Shown here piece by piece: positions 25,772-37,150 of a stretch of DNA of 64,000 nt. The stretch is from Thermoanaerobaculia bacterium (GTDB lineage Bacteria; Acidobacteriota; Thermoanaerobaculia; UBA5066): contig JAJVIN010000022.1 in assembly GCA_022071945.1 (NCBI GenBank), positions 40,757-104,756 of the forward strand, given 5' to 3'. The notes under the pieces are model-generated. The model did no database searches, was not told the origin of the DNA, and was given only the letters and a program-made list of their open reading frames with translations. How positions within the stretch are numbered: the first letter of the stretch is position 1; every line of letters starts with the position of its first letter. Position numbers and translations under genes: made by a program.

Positions 25772-26884
25772 CTACAGAGGCTCGCGGGACGTGCTCGCCG
25801 AGTTCCCCCGGGGCGCGGCGCAATTGAAGAAATCGAGCTCGGGGTCCAGGGGCCGTTCCTCGTCCGGCCTCATCTGCTGTCGCTCGAGGGCCGCCTGCTG
25901 AAGCTCGCGGGCGAGCCGGTCGAGGAGCGTGGCCTTCTCGACTTCGCGAGCCCAGTCGGGAGGAATCGCCCCGACTCCGCCCATCGCCCCGGCGATGGAG
26001 CCGGCGATACAGGCGATCGAATCGCTGTCGCCTGAAGAGTTCGCACCCCGCAGGACGCTTTCCCGGAAGCCGCCCTGGGCCCGGTGGAGGCACCAGAGGG
26101 CGGTCGCCACCGCCTCCTCGCCGATCCACCCTTCGCCGAGGAGATCACACACGTTTTCGGCCTCCCTCCCGAGCATGACGCGAGTTGAATCGAGGGCGGC
26201 GAGCATCTCTTCGGCACCGGGCTGGTGAGCCAACTCCTCCGCGCACCCGGCTTCTCTCAGGACGTTCGCCGTCAGTTGCGAGACGCACTCACGGGTGAAG
26301 TCCAGCATTCCAGAGAGCCCGTTCCCGCGAGCCGCCCAGGCGACGGGCGCGGCCGCCGCCACGGAGCTCGCGACCGCCGTCGGGTGTCCGTGAGTCAAGA
26401 CGCTCTGCGCCGCGGCCACCCGGATCATGGCGGCCGTGTCGTCCTGGAAATAGAGCCCGATGGGTGCGGCCCGCATCGCGGCCCCGCAGCCCTTGGAGCC
26501 CTTCACTCCCGCTGCCCGCCACGGGCGCCCGCCGGCCAGATTCCGGCACCCCGACATGCAGGTGCCGCCCGGTGCACGGTTGTTATCCGGATGGCGGTAC
26601 CAGGCGACGAACTCCTGCCCGAGGACGGTCATGAGCGTGTCGAGGTCCCGGTGTCCCGACCGGATGAGGGCCCGGGCCACGGCGAGGGCCATCTGAGTGT
26701 CATCGGTGAAGGTGCCCGCCGGGTGACGTCCCGAGGGCTGGAAGTCCGTCACTCCGGCCTCTCCCCAGCGCGCGCGAATGGCCGAAAGGCTCGAGACGAA
26801 CTCGGTGGGGTGGCCGAGGGCATCCCCGATCGCCAGTCCGAGAATGGACCCGCGAAAACGGTCCTCGATAGTGATCTGGGTCAT
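25772..26884 (-). CDS. ADP-ribosylglycohydrolase (ADPRH/DraG-like)
   Basis: Removes ADP-ribose from modified targets using a dinuclear metal centre. The 370-residue product has the GDALGHPTEF loop, the FTDDTQM motif (Thr60, Asp61, Asp62) and the C-terminal SSGDSDSIACIAG motif (Asp286, Asp288), which together supply the metal ligands. No signal peptide. ATG at 26884 overlaps the stop of the reverse transcriptase gene (ATGA), so it is the last gene of the retron/ADP-ribosylation array and probably co-expressed. Predicted to be the eraser partner of the PARP in the same operon. The substrate, protein or nucleic acid, is unknown. Confidence 0.88.
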   Translation of the reverse strand: MTQITIEDRFRGSILGLAIGDALGHPTEFVSSLSAIRARWGEAGVTDFQPSGRHPAGTFTDDTQMALAVARALIRSGHRDLDTLMTVLGQEFVAWYRHPDNNRAPGGTCMSGCRNLAGGRPWRAAGVKGSKGCGAAMRAAPIGLYFQDDTAAMIRVAAAQSVLTHGHPTAVASSVAAAAPVAWAARGNGLSGMLDFTRECVSQLTANVLREAGCAEELAHQPGAEEMLAALDSTRVMLGREAENVCDLLGEGWIGEEAVATALWCLHRAQGGFRESVLRGANSSGDSDSIACIAGSIAGAMGGVGAIPPDWAREVEKATLLDRLARELQQAALERQQMRPDEERPLDPELDFFNCAAPRGNSASTSREPL

Positions 26885-28266
26885 GTCTTGGCCTCCAGGG
26901 CCCTGGCGAGGGCCGCCTCCAGCTTTGACTTCTTCGACGGGTCCACCATCGCGACGTAGGCGACCCGGCCCCTGAGATACCCGGCGAAATCCGGATGGGC
27001 CTCTCGGTTCTGGGTCGCGAGGCCCAAGCGCGCGGCGTTGCAGAGGATCGCGCGGAGTTCCCGGACCTCGCGCCTGGAGACACCCACCTTGTCGTTCACG
27101 GTCACGCCAGTGACCTCTTGACGCTCCCCGCGCCGCATCACGCGGGTCTTTTCCGGATGCGGGACGAAGCCCTCGCTGCCCGCGATGCTCTGGATGCTCC
27201 TTAACAACCGTCCGACGGCCGTGGCGTCGTCACCCGAGAATGTGAGGTCGTCCGCGTAGCGGGTGTAGGTGAAACCGTGTCGCGCGGCGAGGCCCGTGAG
27301 CCTCCTGTCCAGCCGGTGACAGACAGCGTTCGTGATCGCCGGGCTCGTACAGGCACCCTGGGGGAGCGTACGAGAGGAGAGCGCGATGAAATAGGCCTTC
27401 CCTCCCAGTTCGGCCGCGACACGGGGAGGCTCCGTGCACAAGAGAGCGAGGAGGACGGCCACGGGTTCGTTGTAGCCGAGGCGCCGGAAGAGCCCCTTCA
27501 CCCGCCGGAACGTGACGGTGGGAAAGAAGTCCTTCATGTCCATGTTGATGACGACCCGTCGTCCGGCGTGGGGTGCCGCGTTGCTCACGATCGAGCGGCC
27601 GTGAACGAAGCCGTGGGCCGCGTCGTCCGGGGTGAGGCGCGAGAGGATCCGGGTCAGGATCCACCGCTGGGCCACCGCCAGCGAGGCCTTCGGGGCCGAG
27701 ATCGCCCGGATCCCGCCGGACTTCTTCGGAATCCCGAACCGGTGGTAGTGAACGAGGGCCGCGGCGTTGCGGTGGTAGGTGAGCCAGCGGAGCTTTCCGA
27801 TCGTGATGCCGAGCCACCTCGCCAGGTCTTGTCCGTCGTGCATCATGGGGAGGCCTCGCCGGACGAGTTCCTCGAGCGAGCTCCTGCCAGGAGTCTCGAG
27901 GCCAGCGCTGACTCCGGTCCCGGCATGGACGACCGAACGTTCCCTGAAGGCAGCCCACTCTTTCTGGCGCGCCTCGCGCTCGGCCGCGCGTTTCTCCTTC
28001 AGCTCGGCGCGCCGCTTTCGGCTCTCCTCGATGCGGCGTTTGCGCTCCTGTGCGAGAGCCTTTTCTGGATCCGCCGCCACCTTTCTCTCGCCCGCAAGCC
28101 GAGCGATCTCCTTCTCGATTCGCTGGCGATCCTTCACCTCTTCCGGTGGGTCAGGCGGGACACCGGCGGATGCGGGCCAGAACCCGTGCATCCGCATCCG
28201 CGCCAGTACGGTCTCCTCGTTCATCTCCGAGGTGATGCGCTGGTAGAGACGTGCTTTCTCGTTCAC
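26881..28266 (-). CDS. Retron reverse transcriptase with N-terminal coiled-coil extension
   Basis: Synthesises msDNA from the adjacent structured RNA. Retron hallmarks are intact in the 461-residue product: region X NAxxH as Asn229-Ala-Ala-Pro-His233, the first catalytic Asp in NMDMKDFFPTV (Asp243), YADD at 337-340, and region Y Val-Thr-Gly at 385-387. The first 135 residues are an extension, with a highly charged helix (about 48-108) likely to be a coiled coil, resembling the long myxobacterial-type retron RTs. The annotated start is a GTG at 28266, only 13 bases after the a2 repeat. An ATG at 28224 preceded by GGAG is an alternative. Coupled to the ADP-ribosylglycohydrolase by ATGA. Confidence 0.92.
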   Translation of the reverse strand: MNEKARLYQRITSEMNEETVLARMRMHGFWPASAGVPPDPPEEVKDRQRIEKEIARLAGERKVAADPEKALAQERKRRIEESRKRRAELKEKRAAEREARQKEWAAFRERSVVHAGTGVSAGLETPGRSSLEELVRRGLPMMHDGQDLARWLGITIGKLRWLTYHRNAAALVHYHRFGIPKKSGGIRAISAPKASLAVAQRWILTRILSRLTPDDAAHGFVHGRSIVSNAAPHAGRRVVINMDMKDFFPTVTFRRVKGLFRRLGYNEPVAVLLALLCTEPPRVAAELGGKAYFIALSSRTLPQGACTSPAITNAVCHRLDRRLTGLAARHGFTYTRYADDLTFSGDDATAVGRLLRSIQSIAGSEGFVPHPEKTRVMRRGERQEVTGVTVNDKVGVSRREVRELRAILCNAARLGLATQNREAHPDFAGYLRGRVAYVAMVDPSKKSKLEAALARALEAKT

Positions 28267-28279
28267 GAAGAGGGGCTCA

Positions 28280-28535
28280 CGATCGAGGATGGGGAGCCGG
28301 GCGTCCTACGAACTTCCACGGGACGCGCTCGTTTGACTGAAGCGCCGGCGCACCGGTCGAAGACCGCGGGTCCCGGCGGGACCCATCCAGGAGCGGTCCG
28401 ACCGGTGCCGCCGGCAGCGAGTGGTAAACGGGCGCGTGACGAATGCCGGGCACGTGGGCAAGCGCGGCGTGACACCGCACGGAAGGCATGACCTTCTTGG
28501 CTAGAAACGCGATCCCGGCTCCCCATCCTCCATCG
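28280..28535 (-). ncRNA. Retron msr-msd RNA with a1/a2 inverted repeats
   Basis: The 277-bp gap before the RT gene has terminal inverted repeats: 28514-28535 (a1, 5' on the minus strand) and 28280-28301 (a2) are complementary over 21 of 22 bases, including a perfect 17-bp core GAGGATGGGGAGCCGGG. Between them, in RNA order, come two hairpins. The first pairs 28482-28486 with 28492-28496. The second pairs 28464-28469 with 28473-28478 and contains a G-U pair only on the minus strand. A long msd-like hairpin follows: 28323-28334/28426-28437 (outer), 28344-28349/28410-28415, 28350-28358/28400-28408, 28362-28367/28393-28398 and a 7-bp tip stem at 28368-28384. The branching G was not identified with confidence. 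Confidence 0.88.
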
Positions 28536-28543
28536 TCCGGCGC

Positions 28544-30247
28544 TCAGGCCGGCTCGAGCCCTCCTTTCGAGTCCTCTTCCTCCAGCCGTTGCATGTGAGC
28601 GAGGCGAAGCCCCAGAACATGCTCGCAGGGACCCTTCGTCAATGCGTGGCTCTTGAACTGGGCACACGTACACGACGCCTCGATGATCCTTCCCTCGTGA
28701 TCGACATGGAGCAGGGGCCGCACGCGCGGGCCGCTTGCTCCCCGGGCGCTCCCGCTCAGCTTGAATCCCGTCGTCACCGGCCGGCGGGCGATCACGCGGA
28801 CCCTCTCGGCCTCGAACATCTCCCGCGCCGCCTTGGCCTCAGGACCCTTCTCCGCAACCGCCGGTTTCACGGCGGCCGCGGCCTCTTGAGCCGTGAAGGG
28901 GTCGAAGAAGAGGTCCCGGTGCCGGTAGGCGCGGCGGGAGAGGTCGTAGATCGCTCGTCCCAGCTGGCAGAGGTGAGACGCCGCGCTTCTGCACGCCTCG
29001 ACTCCGAGCCCCGTCGCGTCCGCGAGTTCGGAACCGGTCGCGACCCTCCTCTCTCGCAAGGCCTCGTAGACGGCGGTCAAGTCCGCCGCGGTGCCTGCCA
29101 GACGCCTCGTCAAGAGATCGAACCTCGCTCCGCCGGTCCAGTCGTTGTCGGTCCAGCCCGAGAGGCCGAGAGTGAAGGTCGCTCCCTCCATGTCGAGGAC
29201 GTAGAAGCTCGGAAGGCCGAATCCAGCGAGGAAAACACCAACCCGGCGTGTCCATGGCAGCAGGCGGGAGAGCACCTTGAGGCGGTCGCGGCCCCAGGTC
29301 CGGATCGAGGAAGGCGGACCCTCGTGAATGCCCGCCAGCTCGATGACGTGCCCGCTGGGCTCGAAGACCGCTCGCACCCTCTTGCCCGGCTGCATCTCGT
29401 ATCGCAGGGCGCGAGGCGACTTTCGGGTCCGGTGGAGGCGAAGGTACCGGCAGATGTTGTAGAGGTCGACGGGCGCCATCGCGACGCGGGTCAGGGCGAG
29501 CGTCATCGCGCTCTGCACCTGCAGGAATCCGCGGAGCCAGCTGGCGGGGAGCTCGACCTTCTTCTCCCGGTGGACCTCGAATCCAGATTCCGTCTGGGAG
29601 GCGACGGCCATTCCCATGGGCCCGAGAGCCAGGCGCGCCGCGCGGTAGCCCCGAATCCGCTCGAGTCCATCCGCGAGGGCGGCCGAGAAGTCGATGTTGG
29701 TCGTCCCACACGCGAAGGGTCCGGCGTCCGCAAAGTGCGAATGGGGGACGCCCAGTCTGGCGTACGAACTCTCGTCGCGCGAGAACGCCTCGAAGAAGAT
29801 CTCGTCGGGATGTACCGTGATCACGGGGTCGAGGATGAAGAACTTCTCGTACTCGTTCTCGAGTGCGAACTGGAAGTACCGGAGGCGCGCCTGGTGGAAC
29901 GCCTCGCGGCGCTTCTCGCGGAGGCGGTTCAATCCGTCGAGCTCCTCATGAAGCCCTTCCAGCTCCTGCCGGGCTCTCTCGCTCCGGATTGACAGATTCG
30001 ACAGAAACCGCCGGTCTTGCTCCTCGAGCCAGGCCCGGTACCGGGGCCGGTCCTTCGGGTGGAACTTCAGATCGCTGACGACCACGCTCCGGAGGGCACC
30101 CAGAGCTTCCCGCAGGAGCACGGGGCGGCCGAGGACCCCGCTGAAATAGACGTTCTCGCGCAGAGTGTTCGTGGCGAGCCCGATGTGGGTGCTCCGAGCG
30201 GACTGGCTGATTGCGCTCGCCGCCGCGTACTTCAGGTTCACGATCAT
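28544..30247 (-). CDS. Winged-helix/SWIM zinc-finger protein associated with the retron
   Basis: A 567-residue protein with a long N-terminal region of unknown fold, including a coiled-coil-like segment at about 87-120. A winged-helix-like segment lies near 392-440 (VYEALRERRVATGSELADATGLG). A C-terminal SWIM zinc finger has Cys526, Cys528, Cys541 and His543 (CxC...CxH). SWIM domains bind nucleic acid or proteins. The ATG at 30247 overlaps the HEAT-protein stop (ATGA). From memory, HEAT-repeat plus WH-SWIM proteins were reported as partners of one retron class (type XIII in my recollection), which fits this layout. That assignment should be checked. Confidence 0.8.
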   Translation of the reverse strand: MIVNLKYAAASAISQSARSTHIGLATNTLRENVYFSGVLGRPVLLREALGALRSVVVSDLKFHPKDRPRYRAWLEEQDRRFLSNLSIRSERARQELEGLHEELDGLNRLREKRREAFHQARLRYFQFALENEYEKFFILDPVITVHPDEIFFEAFSRDESSYARLGVPHSHFADAGPFACGTTNIDFSAALADGLERIRGYRAARLALGPMGMAVASQTESGFEVHREKKVELPASWLRGFLQVQSAMTLALTRVAMAPVDLYNICRYLRLHRTRKSPRALRYEMQPGKRVRAVFEPSGHVIELAGIHEGPPSSIRTWGRDRLKVLSRLLPWTRRVGVFLAGFGLPSFYVLDMEGATFTLGLSGWTDNDWTGGARFDLLTRRLAGTAADLTAVYEALRERRVATGSELADATGLGVEACRSAASHLCQLGRAIYDLSRRAYRHRDLFFDPFTAQEAAAAVKPAVAEKGPEAKAAREMFEAERVRVIARRPVTTGFKLSGSARGASGPRVRPLLHVDHEGRIIEASCTCAQFKSHALTKGPCEHVLGLRLAHMQRLEEEDSKGGLEPA

Positions 30248-32748
30248 GGCGCCTCCCCCGCGAGAAGCTGGAGAGGACTGGGAATCCCAGGAAACGCGAG
30301 CCGTATCGCGGCCAGAGACGTGATCACGAGTTCGAAGTCGTGCTTTCCTTCAGTCCCGGCGAAATCCCCAAGAAGTGCGGCGGCGGCCCGGGCGTTCTCC
30401 CCGTCGCGCACACCGGCCGCATGCAGAATCGAGAGAGCGCCCGTTCTCGACATGCGGTCAGACTTCGGGTCGAAAAGGATGCTCCGCAACAGGCCGATGA
30501 CGTCCTCGCTCAGGGTGATCTCTTCCGCGCGCCGGCTCAGGAGAACTTCCACGGCGATTCGGCGCACGCCACTCTGAGGATGCTGCGCGAGCCGGGCGAC
30601 GATCTTGGCCGCCGTCGCCCCGTCGAGGGCGCCCAGGTCGCGAAACAGAAGGTCGCGTCCGAGGGCTTGTACGTCCTTTCTGCTGGAGTCGAGAAAGCCC
30701 AGCGCGGTCTCTCTTCCGAGCCTGGGTGCGAGCTCTTCGCGCAGGAGGCCAATCGCGAACTCGCGAGAGTCCGGCCAGTCGCTCTCGACGAGGGTGAAGA
30801 GCGGCGACGGGTCCGCCATCAAGGCGGGGAGGGCTCTTCTCAGAAGCGAGCGGACTGACCCTCTGAGCGAGGCGACCTCGTGTGATCCGAGCTGCGCCAG
30901 CCTCGCCAGACCGATCGAATCGAGGGCTTCCGCATGCCAGCCGAGAAGGGCGCCCGCCACGCTTCTGGCCCCGGTCGAACCGGAGGCGAGGAGCACGATG
31001 AGGTGCTCCATCGGGAGAAGCGGCAGGAGTTCCGGCATCAGCGCCTGGGTGGCGACGAGGGCGAAGCCGTCGTGCGCGCCCGGTTCGCCCTCGGGCTGCA
31101 ACAGGATCCTCGAGATCTGATGGGCGAGTTCGTCCCGCAATGCTGGACCGGCGGCCGCGAGTTCCGGAGAGGCCAGGCGGGCGACGGCATCGCGAACGAC
31201 GGCGTCTTTTGCCCCGAGCAATCGAATGAGGATTCCGGCGCTCGTACTCCAGACGGGGGCCGAGACCTCGAGCCACTGGAGAGCCAGGTCGCGAACGCGG
31301 GGCCGCCCATCCTCCGCGAGGGCCGTCAGCAGCTCGAGATCAGGCGAGGCGGGGTCGAAGCGGCGGTTCAGTTCTTCCAGGCCGAGTTCGACCGTCCCTT
31401 CATGCGGGGCGCTGAGGAACGCGACGAGGTCCCTGGGTTCGGCGGCCTCGACGGCGTGCCGGTGCGCCCGCTTCACGGCCGACAGGGCGAACTCGTGTAC
31501 CTCCCAGAGTCTGGCTCCTGCCAGGAGGCGGACGAAGGCCCGGGGCGACGCGTCCCAGAGGTCGGGAAAAGACTCTTCACGGGTCTCGGAATGGGCGGTG
31601 GTCTTCTTTCCGCGGTGACGGAAGGAGAGGCTCGATCTGACGAGTTCGAAGCGTGGGCTTCGCCCGCGGAGGATCTGGTGGAGGAGATGGCAGGAGGCAA
31701 GGGACCCTGAGAGTCCGGAAGGCTCGCTGGCGTCCGAGGGCCGGTAGTGAACCAGGATCTCGGCGGCCGTTGCGGCGTAGAGATCGGGCCGGTACCGGGC
31801 GAGACGCCTGAGGTGCCGCCAGGAGAGCCGCATCATGTAGAGCTGGGTCCTGTGACGAAAGACAGGGGACTTTCTCGTCACGCCGTCGAGCCCGGACTTG
31901 AGTTCCGCCTCCGTCCCCTCGGACTTTCGTGCGGTCCGCTCGATCCGATAGGCCAGAAGCCCGAAGACCCCCGCATCGCGGCGCAGAACCGAGCGCTTGA
32001 AGATGCTCTTGACGTATCGCCAGACGTGCGGACCTTCGATCTCGACAGTCGTCAGGGCTGCCTTGACGGCGGCTTCCGCTCTCTCGGTGCCGGTTTCGTA
32101 GAGCGTGTCGAGCGCGAGCCCGAGATCCCGGGCCGAAAGGGCCGAAAGCGCCGGCCCGATCGGCGTGTCCGCTTGTGAAAGAGCCTGGTGGAGCGCAGCT
32201 GGCAAGCGTTCGAGGGCCCGCGCCCGTGCCTGAGCGAGACCCTCGGTGTCGCCGAGGTTCCTGAGGGCCTCCACGCCAGAACGGCGGCGAGAGAGGAGCT
32301 TCTTCTCTGCTTCCTGTCTGGCCAGGGGAACGGCGCGAGCGTCTCCGATGAGGCCGAGAGCGTCCAGGATCGAGGAGCGCTCGAACCCGGCCACGGCAAA
32401 CGCGGCGACGAGGGCTGGGACCGCATCCGTCTCCCGGCGCCATCCAAGCCGCTGGGCCGCCAGAGCCCGGGCGCGGGCCGTTCCGGCCTTCAACGCGGAC
32501 GTCATCGCCTCGAGCCCCGCGGGCAAGAAGCCCTCGTTTCTGAGTGCGGCCTCTTCTTCTCGCATCCGGCCGTCGAGTTCCGCCCGGTCGAAGGGACCCA
32601 GGAGAACGGCCTTGCCGAGTTTCGTCCGGCTCGCGCCCCGGGAGACGAGGAGCATGAAGCGCTCCTCCGAGGGCCAGGCTGGCTCGGCTCGCAGGACGGC
32701 GATCCGGTCCGGACCACCTGGATTGAAGAGCCGGACGTGGGGGAGCAT
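30244..32748 (-). CDS. HEAT-repeat protein associated with the retron
   Basis: An 834-residue, almost wholly helical protein with repeated HEAT/ARM-like helix pairs (for example AVPALVAAFAVAGFERSSILDALGLIGDARAVPLA split over two helices near residues 95-130, and AKIVARLAQHPQSGVRRIAVEVLLSRR near 730). The N-terminal 60 residues (RFMLLVSRGASRTKLGKAV then a GP-containing helix) look faintly WGR-like; weak. I chose the ATG at 32748, 22 bases after the macrodomain stop, instead of 32856, which would overlap that gene. Acts presumably as a scaffold. Overlaps the WH-SWIM gene. Confidence 0.78.
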   Translation of the reverse strand: MLPHVRLFNPGGPDRIAVLRAEPAWPSEERFMLLVSRGASRTKLGKAVLLGPFDRAELDGRMREEEAALRNEGFLPAGLEAMTSALKAGTARARALAAQRLGWRRETDAVPALVAAFAVAGFERSSILDALGLIGDARAVPLARQEAEKKLLSRRRSGVEALRNLGDTEGLAQARARALERLPAALHQALSQADTPIGPALSALSARDLGLALDTLYETGTERAEAAVKAALTTVEIEGPHVWRYVKSIFKRSVLRRDAGVFGLLAYRIERTARKSEGTEAELKSGLDGVTRKSPVFRHRTQLYMMRLSWRHLRRLARYRPDLYAATAAEILVHYRPSDASEPSGLSGSLASCHLLHQILRGRSPRFELVRSSLSFRHRGKKTTAHSETREESFPDLWDASPRAFVRLLAGARLWEVHEFALSAVKRAHRHAVEAAEPRDLVAFLSAPHEGTVELGLEELNRRFDPASPDLELLTALAEDGRPRVRDLALQWLEVSAPVWSTSAGILIRLLGAKDAVVRDAVARLASPELAAAGPALRDELAHQISRILLQPEGEPGAHDGFALVATQALMPELLPLLPMEHLIVLLASGSTGARSVAGALLGWHAEALDSIGLARLAQLGSHEVASLRGSVRSLLRRALPALMADPSPLFTLVESDWPDSREFAIGLLREELAPRLGRETALGFLDSSRKDVQALGRDLLFRDLGALDGATAAKIVARLAQHPQSGVRRIAVEVLLSRRAEEITLSEDVIGLLRSILFDPKSDRMSRTGALSILHAAGVRDGENARAAAALLGDFAGTEGKHDFELVITSLAAIRLAFPGIPSPLQLLAGEAP

Positions 32749-32770
32749 CAGCCCTTCAGTTCTCCGGTCC

Positions 32771-33499
32771 TCATTCGGCGTCGTCGAAGTCCGCGTCGGG
32801 ATCAGCCCCCGCGGCGGGCGGCTGGAATCCGATCGGTTTCTTGGAGTTCGCGCCACCCGTTGCGGGGACGCCCTTCAGACTGGCCGGCTTGGAGGTGGAC
32901 TTCGCGGGACCGAGAGGGCCGAGTTCCTCCTCGAGCGCGGCGCGCATGTCGGCGAAGCTCGCGAAATCCCGCCTCCTGAAGAGGCTGTATCCGGTCCACA
33001 TCAGATCCGCGCAGATCTCGACCGGCACTCTCCCGGTATTGGCGCCCAGACCCGGCAGTGCGACGGACTGGATGCCGCCTCCACGTGCGTTCTGCATGTG
33101 GACTGCCTGGAACGCCGCCGCACAGGCGAGGGCCACGTTCATCGAGTCGCTGATGTCTTCGGAGGAGGCAACCATCGTCGGCGTCGAGATCAGGAATCTC
33201 GGCTTGGGCCTTCCGCTCTCCACGCAGGTGGCGCAGCCCACCGGGAGGAACCCGCCGTAAAGCCTCTTGATCTCCGCCTGCACCCGGGCCTCGATCTGCC
33301 CGCCCAGCGCCTGCTTGATCACGCCGTCGAGCCCGCCATCCATGCTCCCGCGAGCGTTGGTCGGCGTGACCCAGGCGTCGACGTCCTGAGCGAGCATGGA
33401 GCCCGAGAGGATGGTGACCTCGGGGTTCTCCTCGAAGGAGGACCGCCAGGCCGCCACCATCTTGGGATTGACGTCGACCAGCGTGACTTGGACGAGCAT
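32771..33499 (-). CDS. Macrodomain protein (ADP-ribose binding or hydrolysing)
   Basis: The 242-residue product has a macrodomain over about residues 1-190. It shows VTILSGSMLAQDVDAWVTPTNARGSMDGGLDGVIK, which follows the usual strand-loop order with the N/TNARG loop and GG loop, and the later segment SVALPGLGANTGRVPVEICA, equivalent to the second ADP-ribose-binding loop. The C-terminal 50 residues are Pro/Ala/Asp-rich and disordered. It lies 9 bases after the PARP-ligase fusion and 22 bases before the HEAT gene. Predicted to read or remove ADP-ribose; which of the two cannot be told from sequence alone. Confidence 0.85.
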   Translation of the reverse strand: MLVQVTLVDVNPKMVAAWRSSFEENPEVTILSGSMLAQDVDAWVTPTNARGSMDGGLDGVIKQALGGQIEARVQAEIKRLYGGFLPVGCATCVESGRPKPRFLISTPTMVASSEDISDSMNVALACAAAFQAVHMQNARGGGIQSVALPGLGANTGRVPVEICADLMWTGYSLFRRRDFASFADMRAALEEELGPLGPAKSTSKPASLKGVPATGGANSKKPIGFQPPAAGADPDADFDDAE

Positions 33500-33508
33500 G
33501 GGCGCCCC

Positions 33509-36403
33509 CTACGACGTGAATTCGACGAGCGTTTCCAGTCTTTGTTGTTGTGCCTTATACACCACGTATTCATCGTCGGCGAAGTCGGAAACGACCAGGC
33601 CATGAGCTCTGACACCGTGACAGCTGTCATAGCCGGCGGGTGGTGCGTTGAGGCCGTAAGTGATCTTCGTGAAGTCCTTCACGCGGCCGAGGGCGACCCG
33701 GGCGATCGCCATCAACCGGGTCTTCTTCCTTCCCGGCGAGGTGTAAAAACTGCTGGTGCAAGCGGCATCGCCAAAGTAGATGCCGTTGCCGAGCCACCCG
33801 GCATCGGTCCGGTGGACGCCCATGCTCACCACGATCTTCGGCAACAGGATTCCGCGCGAGAGGATCCCGACCCAGTTCTTGATGCGGGACCCGTGGAACA
33901 GGAGCCGGTTGTTGCCGATTCCCTCCGCGAACTGGGTCCACTCCACGCCCCGCCTGACGGAGTAGATGTTCTGGACTTTGATGCGGTGCGACTTGACCTG
34001 GCTCTTCAGGACGTAGTCGGTGATCGCCCGGCCCTCGTCGGAGGCGGGGTCGACCCAACCGAGGTCACAACGAAGAGCTTCGTACTGCTTCTCGGTCTCC
34101 GACTTGAAGAGGACGTCACCCGCCTCGCCGTTCACGGCGAGCATGTCCTTCATCAGCTGAAGCGTCTCCTGCTTCTGTTCGAACGCCTCCATCGAGTCGA
34201 TGACGGCTTCCTCGATCGCCGAGCGAGAGCGGCCGATCCTGTGCGGAATGACCGTGTAGAACTCACCCGAGAGTCGGACCATCTCCGCCCGGCTCGCGCT
34301 CTTCTTCTTGAAGACCTCGTAGAGTTCCTGCAGCAGGGCCTCGCCCTTCTCGATCTGGCCGATGGTGAGGACCCCGAGAGGCGTCTCGATTCCGTTCGCG
34401 GTGATCTGCGCCGCGACTGTCGTCGTCAAGGCTGTCGTGGCCTCGGAGTAGATGTAGTTGACGAGCGCGTGGACCTTCGGATGAAGCGCTCCGGCGGGCC
34501 GGTTCTGAATAGGCAGCTCCTCCACGGGCGGCGTCGAGAGGGATGTGATCGCGGGAGGCTCGGTAGCCGGGGCGTGGCCCGTCAACCGCTTGACGAAGCT
34601 GAGGAGTTTTCCCTTGATCGTGGGCCCGGTTTCTGGCGCGGCCGGCGGGGGCGGAGGAGGAAGAGAGACCGTGGCCGGAGGCTGGAGGGGAGGTTCCAGA
34701 ACGGCCTTCTCTCGCGGCTCGGGGCCTCGCGAGATCTTGGCCAGCGTCTTCTCATCGACGTCGCCTGAACTGGCGCCGCGGGCTTTCTGGGATCCGATCT
34801 TGCTCGAGGCGAGGGAGACCTCCCGATAGCCCTTGCGTGTCTTCTGTCCGTAGATGGACTGATACGCGCCCTGGGCCTCCGCCAGGGAATCGAAGAACCG
34901 GCACTCCCTGGCGCCCGCCTCGGGATTCGCCTCGAGGTCGTCCGTGCGGCCGTAATGGGTGAAGACGCGGTAGTGCCCGCCCGCCGCCTGATGGATCTCG
35001 ATGGCGTAGTACTTGTTGTGGTTGCTGACGAGGTCCGTGAGCTGCAGGACGGCCTTTGCGACGATCTCGAAATCGGAGGGGTAAGCCGGTGCCGCCGGAT
35101 CACCGTATCGCCACGTGGAACCGGGCGTCGCCGCGGAAGCCGCCGGGGACTTCGGGACGACCGCCGGCTTTTTCACCGCCGCGGCTACGGAGGGTGCGGG
35201 CGCCAGAGCCTTCGCGGGCGCAGAGGCCGGAGGCGCCCCGGCTGAAGGCGCGGCCCCTGAAGACTGCGCCGCTGCGGCGGAAAGCGCAGAGACCGGCTGG
35301 ACTTCTGGCCCGGCCGCGGGAACCGGGGCGACGGAAGTCTGGATGGGCCAGGCGACGTCCTGCCGGACGCAGACGAAGGACGGGAATCGCGGGACGCCGC
35401 CTTCCGAGAGTTCCTGGTAGCGGAAGGTGATGAGGCTGCCGATCGGTGGAGGGTTCTTCCTCTCGGCATCGGAGAGACCCGTCCCGACCGAGAATCTGAG
35501 ACCTGACGGGAGCTCCACGACGAGGGCCCCCAGCCGCCCCTTGTGCTTGCCGGCACCCGGGGTGTGTTCCACGACGCGAGCCTCGGCGTCATGAAAGCTC
35601 TTGATCTTCAAGAGCGTCATCGACCGGCCCGCCTCGTAGGGAGAACCGGGTTTCCGCATCATCAGGCCCTCGCCCCCGAGAGACTCGACGCGCGCGAGTT
35701 CTTTCCGGATGTGCTCGATCCCGGTGCAGAGCTGATGGTCGTGGGCCACTGTGTGGGGCGGTTTGGCCGACTCCATGTGCGCACGGCAGAACGCGAGCCG
35801 CTCCTCGAAAGGTGCCTTCAGCGAGGGAGCGTCGAAGACGACGAACGAGACTTCCTTCCAGTCCTTGCCGCGGTCCTGCCGCCGGACGATGCTGATGGTG
35901 CGCTGGAACTTCTTCCGGCCGCTCCAGAGCTCGCCGTCGAGGGGGACGTCGGGTAGCCCCTCGATGAACCAGTCGGGGGCGAGGTAGGGATTCCCGAGCC
36001 GGGAAAGGAACTGCTTGCCATCCCAGTACGCCCGGACGCCGTCGAGCTTCTCGCTCATCCACCAGCCGGTGAGGTCGATGTCGCCTTCCCAGGAGTGGGC
36101 AAGAAGCAGCGGCGGTCCCTTGGTTTCATCGGTCTCCTCCGGGGCGATGCCGTCGCCGGCGGGCGCGGGAGCTGCCTTCGGAACGGGCTTCGGAGCGGGG
36201 GCGGCGTTGCCGACGCGAGCCTCCTCGGCGGCCGCGCCTCGATAGGACTTCAGGTGCTTGCACGTCCGCTTCTCGATCCCGACGGACTGGTTTCTCCAGG
36301 CCGGGCAGCTGCACGAGTAGACGCCCCCCTTGTTGGCGAGGACGTAGGGCTTCGCCGCCGAGCCCTGCACTTCAACCGTCGCCCCGTCATCGATGTCTGG
36401 CAT
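33509..36403 (-). CDS. SWIM - ATP-dependent ligase - WGR - PARP fusion protein
   Basis: A 964-residue multidomain enzyme. Order: SWIM zinc finger (Cys31, Cys33, Cys48, His50); ATP-dependent DNA-ligase nucleotidyltransferase domain with adenylation Lys119 in EKLDGVR, LDGELW (155-160), EGLMMR (245-250) and LLKIK (264-268), then an OB fold (about 283-350); a Pro/Ala linker; a WGR domain (about 458-545, with YYAIEI and HYGRTD); and a PARP helical regulatory region (about 640-770). Last is a PARP catalytic domain with the H-Y-E triad His837, Tyr876 and Glu945. All motifs look intact. It predicts DNA- or RNA-end sensing, ligation and ADP-ribosylation in one chain. Confidence 0.9.
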   Translation of the reverse strand: MPDIDDGATVEVQGSAAKPYVLANKGGVYSCSCPAWRNQSVGIEKRTCKHLKSYRGAAAEEARVGNAAPAPKPVPKAAPAPAGDGIAPEETDETKGPPLLLAHSWEGDIDLTGWWMSEKLDGVRAYWDGKQFLSRLGNPYLAPDWFIEGLPDVPLDGELWSGRKKFQRTISIVRRQDRGKDWKEVSFVVFDAPSLKAPFEERLAFCRAHMESAKPPHTVAHDHQLCTGIEHIRKELARVESLGGEGLMMRKPGSPYEAGRSMTLLKIKSFHDAEARVVEHTPGAGKHKGRLGALVVELPSGLRFSVGTGLSDAERKNPPPIGSLITFRYQELSEGGVPRFPSFVCVRQDVAWPIQTSVAPVPAAGPEVQPVSALSAAAAQSSGAAPSAGAPPASAPAKALAPAPSVAAAVKKPAVVPKSPAASAATPGSTWRYGDPAAPAYPSDFEIVAKAVLQLTDLVSNHNKYYAIEIHQAAGGHYRVFTHYGRTDDLEANPEAGARECRFFDSLAEAQGAYQSIYGQKTRKGYREVSLASSKIGSQKARGASSGDVDEKTLAKISRGPEPREKAVLEPPLQPPATVSLPPPPPPAAPETGPTIKGKLLSFVKRLTGHAPATEPPAITSLSTPPVEELPIQNRPAGALHPKVHALVNYIYSEATTALTTTVAAQITANGIETPLGVLTIGQIEKGEALLQELYEVFKKKSASRAEMVRLSGEFYTVIPHRIGRSRSAIEEAVIDSMEAFEQKQETLQLMKDMLAVNGEAGDVLFKSETEKQYEALRCDLGWVDPASDEGRAITDYVLKSQVKSHRIKVQNIYSVRRGVEWTQFAEGIGNNRLLFHGSRIKNWVGILSRGILLPKIVVSMGVHRTDAGWLGNGIYFGDAACTSSFYTSPGRKKTRLMAIARVALGRVKDFTKITYGLNAPPAGYDSCHGVRAHGLVVSDFADDEYVVYKAQQQRLETLVEFTS

Positions 36404-36436
36404 GACGCCAAGCCTATCGAAATCGTCGCCGGATCG

Positions 36437-37150
36437 TCACGGCGTGCTGGCGAGTCGGTACAGGAGGGAACGCCCCCGCTTGCCTGCCTGCTCGATGACG
36501 CCGGCCTCGCGGAGGCAATACGCGGCCTTCTGGGCGAGGTCCCTGCCGATTCCCATCGAGCTCGCCAAGTCGATCGTGGTGAAGGACTCGAGCCCCTCCG
36601 GAAGAAGGTCCCGCCAATCGGACGGGTCCTGGAACAGCCGCTGGTCCACGACTTCCAGCAACCGCCGTTCTTCGACGGTCCAGCCCTTACTGCGCCATCG
36701 CCGCTTCTCCTCGGGTCGCCTCGTTTCCTCGACCCGGATCCTCAGCACGTGAAGCGAGAAGTTCCGGTGGCACAGCAACAGCGGGATGCTCACCGCCTCG
36801 CGGAAGACGTCCTCGAGCCGTCCCTTTCTCGGTGACCTTCGACGGGTGGAGAGACGGTCCTCGCCGGACGTGGGACGTCGGGACGTGGGACGTCCGGACG
36901 CGGGACGGACGATCCACTTCTCCACGATGATGGGATAGACGAGTCGAATCCGGTGGGAGCGAGCCAGGGCCGTGAGTTTCGGCTTGATGGCCGAGAAGTT
37001 CCTCGTTTGAACCTCTATCAGGAGATCGTCGCGAACGATATCGATGACGAACCTGCCCACTGGGACTTCGAATCGATCGCCCGGTCTTGAATACCACTGC
37101 TTCAGGGAAGCGTGGAGGGCGGTCTCATTCAGCAGGCCTATTCCCGTCAT
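36437..37150 (-). CDS. Putative PD-(D/E)XK-like protein with C-terminal winged helix (DUF8091-like)
   Basis: A 237-residue protein whose N-terminal half (NETALHASLKQWYSRPGD, then FVIDIVRDDLLIEVQT) has an Asp...Glu-x-Gln pattern resembling restriction-like folds. It is followed by RIRLVYPIIVEKWIVR. The C-terminal 60 residues (TTIDLASSMGIGRDLAQKAAYCLREAGVIEQAG) look like a winged helix. The Arg/Pro/Ser-rich joint between them (about residues 83-105) is encoded by GGGACGTC-type short repeats at about 36866-36908. It is the first gene of the array and starts with no strong Shine-Dalgarno. Nuclease activity is a guess; the family name is from memory. Confidence 0.6.
   Translation of the reverse strand: MTGIGLLNETALHASLKQWYSRPGDRFEVPVGRFVIDIVRDDLLIEVQTRNFSAIKPKLTALARSHRIRLVYPIIVEKWIVRPASGRPTSRRPTSGEDRLSTRRRSPRKGRLEDVFREAVSIPLLLCHRNFSLHVLRIRVEETRRPEEKRRWRSKGWTVEERRLLEVVDQRLFQDPSDWRDLLPEGLESFTTIDLASSMGIGRDLAQKAAYCLREAGVIEQAGKRGRSLLYRLASTP

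What the first reader, a model, noticed from the sequence alone, without database searches (positions are those of the whole stretch)
25772..37150. Candidate new system: retron linked to an ADP-ribosylation writer, reader and eraser plus a nucleic-acid ligase
Seven genes and one ncRNA run in one direction with overlaps or short gaps: PD-(D/E)XK-like, SWIM-ligase-WGR-PARP, macrodomain, HEAT, WH-SWIM, msr-msd, RT and ADP-ribosylglycohydrolase. Two ATGA overlaps (HEAT/WH-SWIM and RT/ADPRH) tie ADP-ribose and retron parts together. The retron core (RT, RNA, HEAT, WH-SWIM) resembles a known retron class from memory. The PARP, macrodomain and ADPRH flank it on both sides. A plausible reading is that msDNA or its disturbance gates ADP-ribosylation of DNA, RNA or a protein, with ligase repairing ends.
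Basis: partly seen in the sequence, partly recalled or inferred. Interest (0 to 1): 0.95.

Follow-up and report, generated by a model that had tools for sequence, protein, structure and literature searches.

The report
Retron operon carrying a PARP module
A bacterial retron (a small reverse-transcriptase element of a family that includes anti-virus systems) sits in one operon with a PARP-type enzyme fused to a DNA ligase, a macrodomain and an ADP-ribosylglycohydrolase-family protein; the set of retron, PARP and macrodomain recurs in three bacterial phyla, so the retron likely controls reversible ADP-ribose tagging, which would probably act on DNA ends.

Summary
The operon is real. Its core (RT, ncRNA, SWIM, HEAT) is a type XIII retron by PADLOC models, with a 246-nt msr-msd-like RNA bounded by perfect 17-nt inverted repeats. 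A SWIM-DNA ligase-WGR-PARP fusion and a macrodomain lie directly upstream, an ADP-ribosylglycohydrolase (ADPRH) directly downstream. The linkage is not chance. All 12 genomes found with this RT clade (SH-aLRT 99) carry the same PARP and macrodomain: 9 in the same gene order, 3 elsewhere in the genome. In 769 Myxococcota and Planctomycetota genomes the PARP occurs in 8 of 8 clade-RT genomes and 1 of 761 others. The 75 other nearest RT loci lack it (some flanks are short), as does a second type XIII retron in this genome. ADPRH is a looser partner (next to RT in 4 of 8 readable linked loci). The ATP-ligase fusion is in 5 database proteins, window included. The upstream 'PD-(D/E)XK' gene is neither confirmed as a nuclease nor found in relatives. 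Best reading: a clade of type XIII retrons that acquired a PARP2/3-like, DNA-end-type ADP-ribosylation module with its own erasers, probably for phage defence. The biochemistry and the direction of control are inferred. Nothing I saw in the searched library links retrons with PARPs.

The parts
36437..37150 (-).
   Evidence: ORF; no family above cut-off, no PDB relative better than E 0.1; no match in the 21 relative loci nor in the 75 other RT loci
33509..36403 (-). 964-aa fusion: SWIM-type Zn motif (by eye) - ATP-dependent DNA ligase (res. 96-349) - WGR (450-529) - PARP_reg (640-756) - PARP catalytic (788-964)
   Evidence: Pfam, NCBIfam PRK09125 E 3.6e-99, PDB 4d05 ligase E 1e-63 and PARP4/PARP2/PARP1. 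His402, Tyr441, Glu510 of the WGR-PARP part invariant in 17 of 17
35357..36118 (-). ligase region with KLDG active-site motif
   Evidence: alignment to solved ATP ligases
32771..33499 (-). 242-aa macrodomain protein
30244..32748 (-). 834-aa HEAT/ARM protein with an N-terminal four-strand + helix domain (possibly a diverged WGR)
   Evidence: PADLOC WGR_XIII and HEAT-ARM_XIII; AlphaFold2 pLDDT 89; start set by homologs
28544..30247 (-). 567-aa SWIM protein (SWIM_XIII)
   Evidence: PADLOC SWIM_XIII E 1.5e-177; Pfam SWIM 17.0 bits, below cut-off
28285..28530 (-). msr-msd-like ncRNA, predicted retron template
   Evidence: a1/a2 arms, conserved hairpins, 17 of 32 consensus pairs with a compensatory change among 11 sequences
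28514..28530 (-). a1 arm, 17 nt
   Evidence: perfect inverted repeat with 28285-28301
28285..28301 (-). a2 arm, 17 nt, 18 nt before the RT start codon
28340..28418 (-). long hairpin, predicted msd
   Evidence: MFE fold; one search lists a hairpin of 75-78 nt span inside the gap in 7 of the 12 other sequences
26881..28266 (-). 461-aa retron reverse transcriptase, type XIII (YADD, NAxxH, VTG invariant in 38 aligned RTs)
25772..26884 (-). 370-aa ADP-ribosylglycohydrolase (DraG/ARH family), Asp motifs of the family kept
   Evidence: Pfam E 4e-74; DraG and ARH3 structures among PDB matches; alignment A5

Best explanation
This is a type XIII retron (RT, msr-msd-like RNA, HEAT and SWIM proteins) of a clade whose known members all carry a DNA-break-type PARP and a macrodomain, and the retron complex would likely hold the PARP inactive until phage attack disturbs the msDNA or exposes DNA ends. 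Shown: the gene set, its conserved order, its co-occurrence, the intact PARP His-Tyr-Glu triad, ligase lysine motif, RT motifs and ncRNA. Inferred: (1) RT makes msDNA from the ncRNA and HEAT + SWIM bind it, as proteins of other multi-gene retrons do. (2) The WGR-helical-ART part has the PARP2/PARP3 layout, so DNA ends or nicks should switch it on. (3) Its likely target is phosphorylated DNA ends, blocking or marking phage (or msDNA) ends. (4) The macrodomain and, where present, the ADPRH strip ADP-ribose so that the host survives. (5) In the window's lineage the fused ATP ligase seals ends after, or directly using, the ADP-ribosylated 5'-phosphate.
For: Type XIII core. Same order PARP-macro-HEAT-SWIM-ncRNA-RT in 9 loci of 3 phyla (the RT of one, G006, is cut by the contig end). 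PARP in 12 of 12 clade genomes; RT clade SH-aLRT 99. PARP in 6 of 6 clade-RT and 1 of 371 other Myxococcota, 2 of 2 and 0 of 390 Planctomycetota (pooled Fisher p 3e-18; without G326, G327 and G328, which I already knew, 5 of 5 against 1 of 761, p 3e-12). Close macro copy in 10 of 10 clade genomes and 1 of 30 others (p 1e-8). RT and PARP distances correlate, r 0.75 on 10 genomes, permutation p 6e-4. ADPRH 6 of 10 against 2 of 30 (p 0.001). Two unlike kinds of ADPRH sit next to the RT (those of G330, G507, G685 are 41-45% identical to the window's). A ligase recurs beside this chemistry: fused to PARP, an extra NAD-ligase copy divergent from PARP in G507 and G685, NAD-ligase Pfam labels in the same chain as ADPRH in P0302, P0303, P0350 and (N-terminal ligase domain only) P0305. 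Review PMC8053099 (passages): PARP2/3 modify DNA-end phosphates, ADP-ribose on the 5' end seems to let ATP ligases seal without ATP, and PARG, MACROD1/2, TARG1 and ARH3 remove it.
Against: No experiment; no msDNA or ADP-ribosylation shown. The PARP lies apart from the retron in 3 of 12 genomes (G328, G329, G541), and in G541 PARP and macro are on different contigs of a draft. G580 has PARP and macro without a clade RT found. ADPRH was not found in 4 of 10 clade genomes nor a SWIM-ligase in G327, G328, G329. In G328 and G671 the ADPRH sits by the only NAD ligase found, so its partner there may be the housekeeping ligase. PDB's best PARP match is human PARP4, not PARP2/3. I read no test of type XIII retrons in defence. 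The tests treat related genomes as independent; G507 and G685 are near-copies. In the large samples only the 1-5 best candidates per genome were scored. PARP without clade RT was not searched for in Acidobacteriota other than the window's genome.
Confidence: 0.42

Rival explanations
1. The retron and PARP are coupled, but as a toxin-antitoxin arrangement on protein or NAD: retron triggering would unleash poly- or mono-ADP-ribosylation of a host protein, or NAD+ loss, and macro + ADPRH act as antitoxins. DNA ends are not the target.
For: His-Tyr-Glu kept, the signature recalled for polymer-making PARPs. Characterised ADPRH-family members act on proteins (passages of PMC9503650). Retrons typically pair with a toxic effector (abstract of PMC12548924 as listed).
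Against: WGR + PARP_reg and repeated ligase partners point to DNA ends.
Confidence: 0.28
2. A DNA-repair or end-processing module (PARP, macro, ADPRH, ligase) that uses retron cDNA as a cofactor or signal, with no role against phage.
For: Ligase links; chromosomal-looking site a few kb from a gyrA-like gene (by eye); no match of the WGR-PARP in 50,697 phage records at E 1e-20 and only distant PARPs on 6 plasmids.
Against: Type XIII proteins are in a defence-gene library, the clade RT is patchy (8 of 769 genomes), and the flanking genes tested differ between window and G006.
Confidence: 0.15
3. Coincidental neighbours: an independent PARP-macro cassette that happens to lie by the retron.
For: PARP apart from the retron in 3 of 12 genomes and present without clade RT in G580.
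Against: 12 of 12 co-occurrence across three phyla, pooled p 3e-18, 3e-12 without the genomes known beforehand, one RT clade, correlated distances.
Confidence: 0.05

Closest known systems
Type XIII retrons (PADLOC RT_XIII, SWIM_XIII, HEAT-ARM_XIII / WGR_XIII)
   Same: RT, SWIM and HEAT families, gene order and an ncRNA-sized gap between SWIM and RT
   Different: PARP, macro and ADPRH in 0 of the 75 other nearest RT loci, of which 58 have a SWIM and 47 also a HEAT match. The HEAT protein has no Pfam WGR in 4 of 4 PARP-clade members tested, against hits above cut-off in 3 of 5 others; here the recognisable WGR sits in the PARP
Bacterial WGR-PARP_reg-PARP proteins (72 sequences analysed in PMC5966428, passages)
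   Same: Domain order and His-Tyr-Glu triad
   Different: This subfamily (60% or more identical, about 475-550 aa when unfused) travels with a retron, and in the window's kin is fused to a SWIM-ATP ligase; the words ligase and retron do not occur in that paper's main text
DarTG, and the ADPRH-centred operons of PMC9503650 (section 3.8 read)
   Same: ADP-ribosylation with macro or ADPRH erasers; phosphatase-ADPRH fusions like those in G507/G685
   Different: Those operons were chosen for lacking a coupled transferase, and that section names no RT; DarT is a different transferase

Membership tests
Retron | RT with YADD, NAxxH and VTG motifs (motif names recalled) | tested here: met
   invariant in 38 of 38 aligned RTs
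Retron | structured ncRNA with a1/a2 inverted repeats beside the RT | tested here: met
Retron | msDNA is produced | not testable with these tools
   needs nucleic-acid extraction
Type XIII retron | RT_XIII + SWIM_XIII + HEAT-ARM/WGR_XIII proteins | tested here: met
   two relatives
Type XIII retron | N-terminal WGR in the HEAT protein | tested here: inconclusive
   no Pfam WGR, but four strands + helix in the model; that part was not searched alone
DNA-dependent PARP (PARP1-3 type) | WGR, helical regulatory domain and ART with His-Tyr-Glu | tested here: met
DNA-dependent PARP (PARP1-3 type) | activation by DNA ends | not testable with these tools
   biochemistry needed
ATP-dependent DNA ligase | nucleotidyltransferase + OB domains and KxDG lysine | tested here: met
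Catalytic macrodomain (MacroD / YMX7 type) | Asn and Asp ten residues apart in the ADP-ribose pocket (role recalled for MACROD2; spacing seen in 1njr) | tested here: met
   Asn48 and Asp58 in 11 of 11; activity not tested
PD-(D/E)XK nuclease (ORF 36437-37150) | recognisable family or fold | tested here: inconclusive
   no sequence match above cut-off; fold not predicted
DarTG | DarT-type transferase | tested here: not met
   the transferase matches Pfam PARP with PARP_reg and WGR; no DarT-named family among the matches

The most novel reading that the evidence does not exclude
A retron whose effector arm is reversible ADP-ribosylation of DNA ends: msDNA gates a PARP that caps 5'-phosphates of phage (or msDNA) DNA, dedicated erasers spare the host, and the fused ligase uses the ADP-ribosylated end as an activated donor. 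It would be the first immune system joining reverse transcription, nucleic-acid ADP-ribosylation and ligation.
Probability: 0.2. Interest if true: 0.95.

Novelty: new variant of a known kind. Interest (0 to 1): 0.8.

Why it matters
Type XIII retrons have no known effector chemistry in what I could read. This clade supplies a concrete, testable one: a PARP with its own erasers, present in 12 of 12 genomes found. It would join two fields (retron immunity and PARP biology), offer a bacterial setting for DNA-end ADP-ribosylation, and give a natural PARP-ligase fusion in which to test whether an ADP-ribosylated 5'-phosphate is a ligation intermediate.

Tried and rejected
Chance neighbours: rejected by the genome counts. 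Reading the set as generic type XIII: rejected, as the 75 other nearest RT loci show no PARP, macro or ADPRH (62 of 75 have over 2 kb upstream of the retron genes and 64 have 1.5 kb or more downstream, the rest are cut shorter by contig ends), and neither does the second type XIII retron of the same genome (L003). Viral origin: the RT scan of viral contigs gave no relative (single-sequence query, so close relatives only); the WGR-PARP gave no match in phages and only 27-34% matches on 6 plasmids. The RT on plasmids: 4 matches at 47-49%, contexts not read. Rfam: no family in the window at gathering scores. PD-(D/E)XK: no support. The first distance correlation was invalid because one PARP (G329) was translated out of frame; redone. 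HEAT fold search gave only generic HEAT-repeat scaffolds (TM about 0.2), no functional clue. Macro: structure alone does not tell reader from eraser. Contig lengths of 9 kb or more shared between RT and ADPRH hits (395558, 50140, 11952, 41056, 29190, 15619) hint at further linked pairs, but the contexts were not read; the 50140 contig length shows up for RT and ADPRH but for no PARP among the 120 listed hits.
Full report
WHAT IS THERE. The window's minus strand carries, in order: a 237-aa ORF (37150-36437), a 964-aa SWIM-ligase-WGR-PARP fusion (36403-33509), a macrodomain protein (33499-32771), a HEAT protein (start 32748 by homology, stop 30244), a SWIM protein (30247-28544), an ncRNA (28530-28285), an RT (28266-26881) and an ADPRH (26884-25772). 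Two ATGA overlaps, HEAT/SWIM and RT/ADPRH, are in the sequence. The HEAT/SWIM overlap recurs in 10 of the 11 clade relatives by automatic start choice (the exception is L013).

THE CORE IS A TYPE XIII RETRON. PADLOC models: RT_XIII 1.3e-163, SWIM_XIII 1.5e-177, WGR_XIII 1.2e-106, HEAT-ARM_XIII 3e-54. RT motifs (YADD, NAxxH, VTG) are invariant among 38 RTs. The SWIM-RT gap folds at -145.5 kcal/mol, z -7.8, between perfect 17-nt arms. Of the 12 other gaps tested, 11 have 13-28-nt arms (G-U allowed) spanning 234-295 nt; in L201 none was clear there, though its fold closes similarly. A hairpin and blocks of invariant sequence are shared. RNAalifold on 11 sequences finds 32 pairs, 17 with at least one compensatory change; MAFFT aligns the outer arms poorly. 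TAGC follows the first arm in 8 of 11 and TGGC in 3 of 11 (read); that its G primes reverse transcription is recalled, not tested.

THE SAME GENOME HAS A CONTROL. Contig C26 holds a second type XIII retron (RT 52% identical) with HEAT, SWIM and RT but no PARP, macro or ADPRH match. The assembly has only one PARP match.

CONSERVATION OF THE LINKAGE. I scanned genome contigs with an RT alignment; the best 80 of 573 confirmed loci were kept. WGR-PARP and macro lie directly upstream of HEAT-SWIM-RT in 3 (L012 Planctomycetota, L013 Myxococcaceae, L016 Sandaracinaceae), all among the five RTs at 58-61% identity. The other two of those five (L014, L015) lack them locally, and none of the remaining 75 has them. 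Those 75 are RT relatives at 38-53%: 58 have a SWIM match, 47 both SWIM and HEAT, and 62 have over 2 kb of sequence upstream of the retron genes. The genomes of L014 and L015 carry the PARP-macro pair on another contig. In the window's own family, G006 has PARP-ligase (72-75%), macro (88% over 198 residues), HEAT, SWIM and a cut RT (71%); the neighbours of the window's operon that I tested and the 237-aa ORF are not beside it.

GENOME COUNTS. Myxococcota sample of 377: clade RT (over 500 bits, 55% or more identical) in 6; close PARP in 7; both in 6. The seventh, G580, has PARP at a contig end, a close macro on another contig, and a 46% RT. Planctomycetota sample of 392: clade RT in 2, PARP in the same 2; G750, whose RT is 52% identical, has none. 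Pooled Fisher p 3e-18. Three of the eight (G326, G327, G328) were known to me beforehand; without them it is 5 of 5 against 1 of 761, p 3e-12. Kinship is not corrected for, and only the best few candidates per genome were scored in these samples. Acidobacteriota sample of 297: clade RT only in the window's genome; PARP was not searched there. The 12 clade RTs are one side of a branch with SH-aLRT 99; G750's RT joins them next (83, midpoint root) (quick tree of 129 RTs). Linked in 9 of 12 (window, G006, G326, G327, G330, G507, G671, G685, G771), unlinked in 3 (G328, G329, G541; drafts). A close macro copy (59% or more) is in 10 of 10 clade genomes tested and 1 of 30 others, the one being G580; 9 of the other 29 have a macro match at 45% or less. 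RT and PARP distances correlate (r 0.86 for 11 genomes, 0.75 without near-identical G685; permutation p 2e-4 and 6e-4). G507 and G685 are near-copies, so independent cases number fewer than 12.

ADPRH. It follows RT on the same strand in the window, G507 and G685, and is convergent just after RT in G330. It was not found by RT in G326, G327, G671, G771, and cannot be read in G006, where the contig ends. Genome-wide: 6 of 10 clade genomes against 2 of 30 others at E 1e-25 (p 0.001). The window's ADPRH is 61-62% identical to those of G671 and G328, which lie away from their RTs, but 41-45% to those beside the RT in G507, G685 and G330, so two kinds of ADPRH have come to lie by this RT. The G685 type carries a phosphatase-like N-terminus, a fusion described in PMC9503650 (section 3.8 read).

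LIGASES. The full SWIM-ligase-WGR-PARP fusion is in 5 of the 120 listed hits (322 found), window included; P0006-P0014 are WGR-PARPs without ligase, and P0015-P0120 carry ligase labels but no PARP label. In G507 and G685 an additional NAD-dependent ligase gene lies divergent from PARP, about 0.1 kb away; each genome has another copy elsewhere, and the G685 copy beside PARP is split by a frameshift. In G328 and G671 the only NAD-ligase match lies by the ADPRH. ADPRH and NAD-ligase labels share a chain in P0302, P0303 and P0350, and P0305 shows the start of one. No SWIM-ligase match was seen in G327, G328 or G329, so a ligase is a recurrent but not obligatory partner.

MECHANISM. PMC8053099 (passages) reports that PARP2 and PARP3 modify phosphorylated DNA ends, that ADP-ribose on such an end seems to enable ligation by ATP-dependent ligases without ATP, and that PARG, MACROD1/2, TARG1 and ARH3 remove ADP-ribose from DNA and RNA. 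A WGR-PARP fused to an ATP ligase, with a YMX7-like macrodomain and an ARH-family hydrolase, fits that chemistry closely. Placing it with a retron suggests msDNA-gated activation in phage defence. The target, the trigger and the defence role are all inferred.

LITERATURE. Searches: retron + ADP-ribosyl gave 36 papers, 25 listed; retron + type XIII gave 1; retron + PARP as whole words gave 2, both on genome editing by their titles; retron neighbourhood terms gave 42, 15 listed. Nothing in the listings, or in the passages of PMC12548924, PMC8934634, PMC7159879 and PMC9967889 found by term, links a retron with a PARP; the unlisted papers were not seen. The classification paper of Mestre and colleagues (doi 10.1093/nar/gkaa1149) is recalled and not held, so prior mention there cannot be excluded.

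VERDICT. A well-supported clade-specific association of a type XIII retron with a PARP-macro module, not met with in the library searched, looser for ADPRH and ligase, with a plausible but untested mechanism.

Noticed in passing
G000:C26, L003:7180-12530 (-): Second type XIII retron in the window's genome (HEAT, SWIM, RT; RT 52% identical to the window's) with no ADP-ribosylation genes beside it: a natural internal control.
   Followed up: yes
P0302, P0303, P0305, P0350; L206 and L207: ADP-ribosylglycohydrolase in one chain with, or directly beside, an NAD-dependent DNA ligase (of the four proteins only P0305 has a named source, Myxococcales): an ADPRH-ligase link apart from the retron.
   Followed up: partly
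L197:2787-4856 (-), L196:13381-15458 (+): Additional NAD-ligase gene divergent from the PARP in G507 and G685; the G685 copy is split between two frames.
   Followed up: partly
P0272: ADPRH with a C-terminal extension that looks BRCT-like by eye; an RT hit (P0229) shares its contig length of 29190.
   Followed up: no
L016:8302-8725: Stretch of short tandem repeats between SWIM and RT, seen as a repetitive reading frame before the RT start.
   Followed up: no
P0016: Database protein with two ligase-like halves by Pfam labels and sequence: WGR plus one ligase-type half, then a SWIM-ATP ligase.
   Followed up: no
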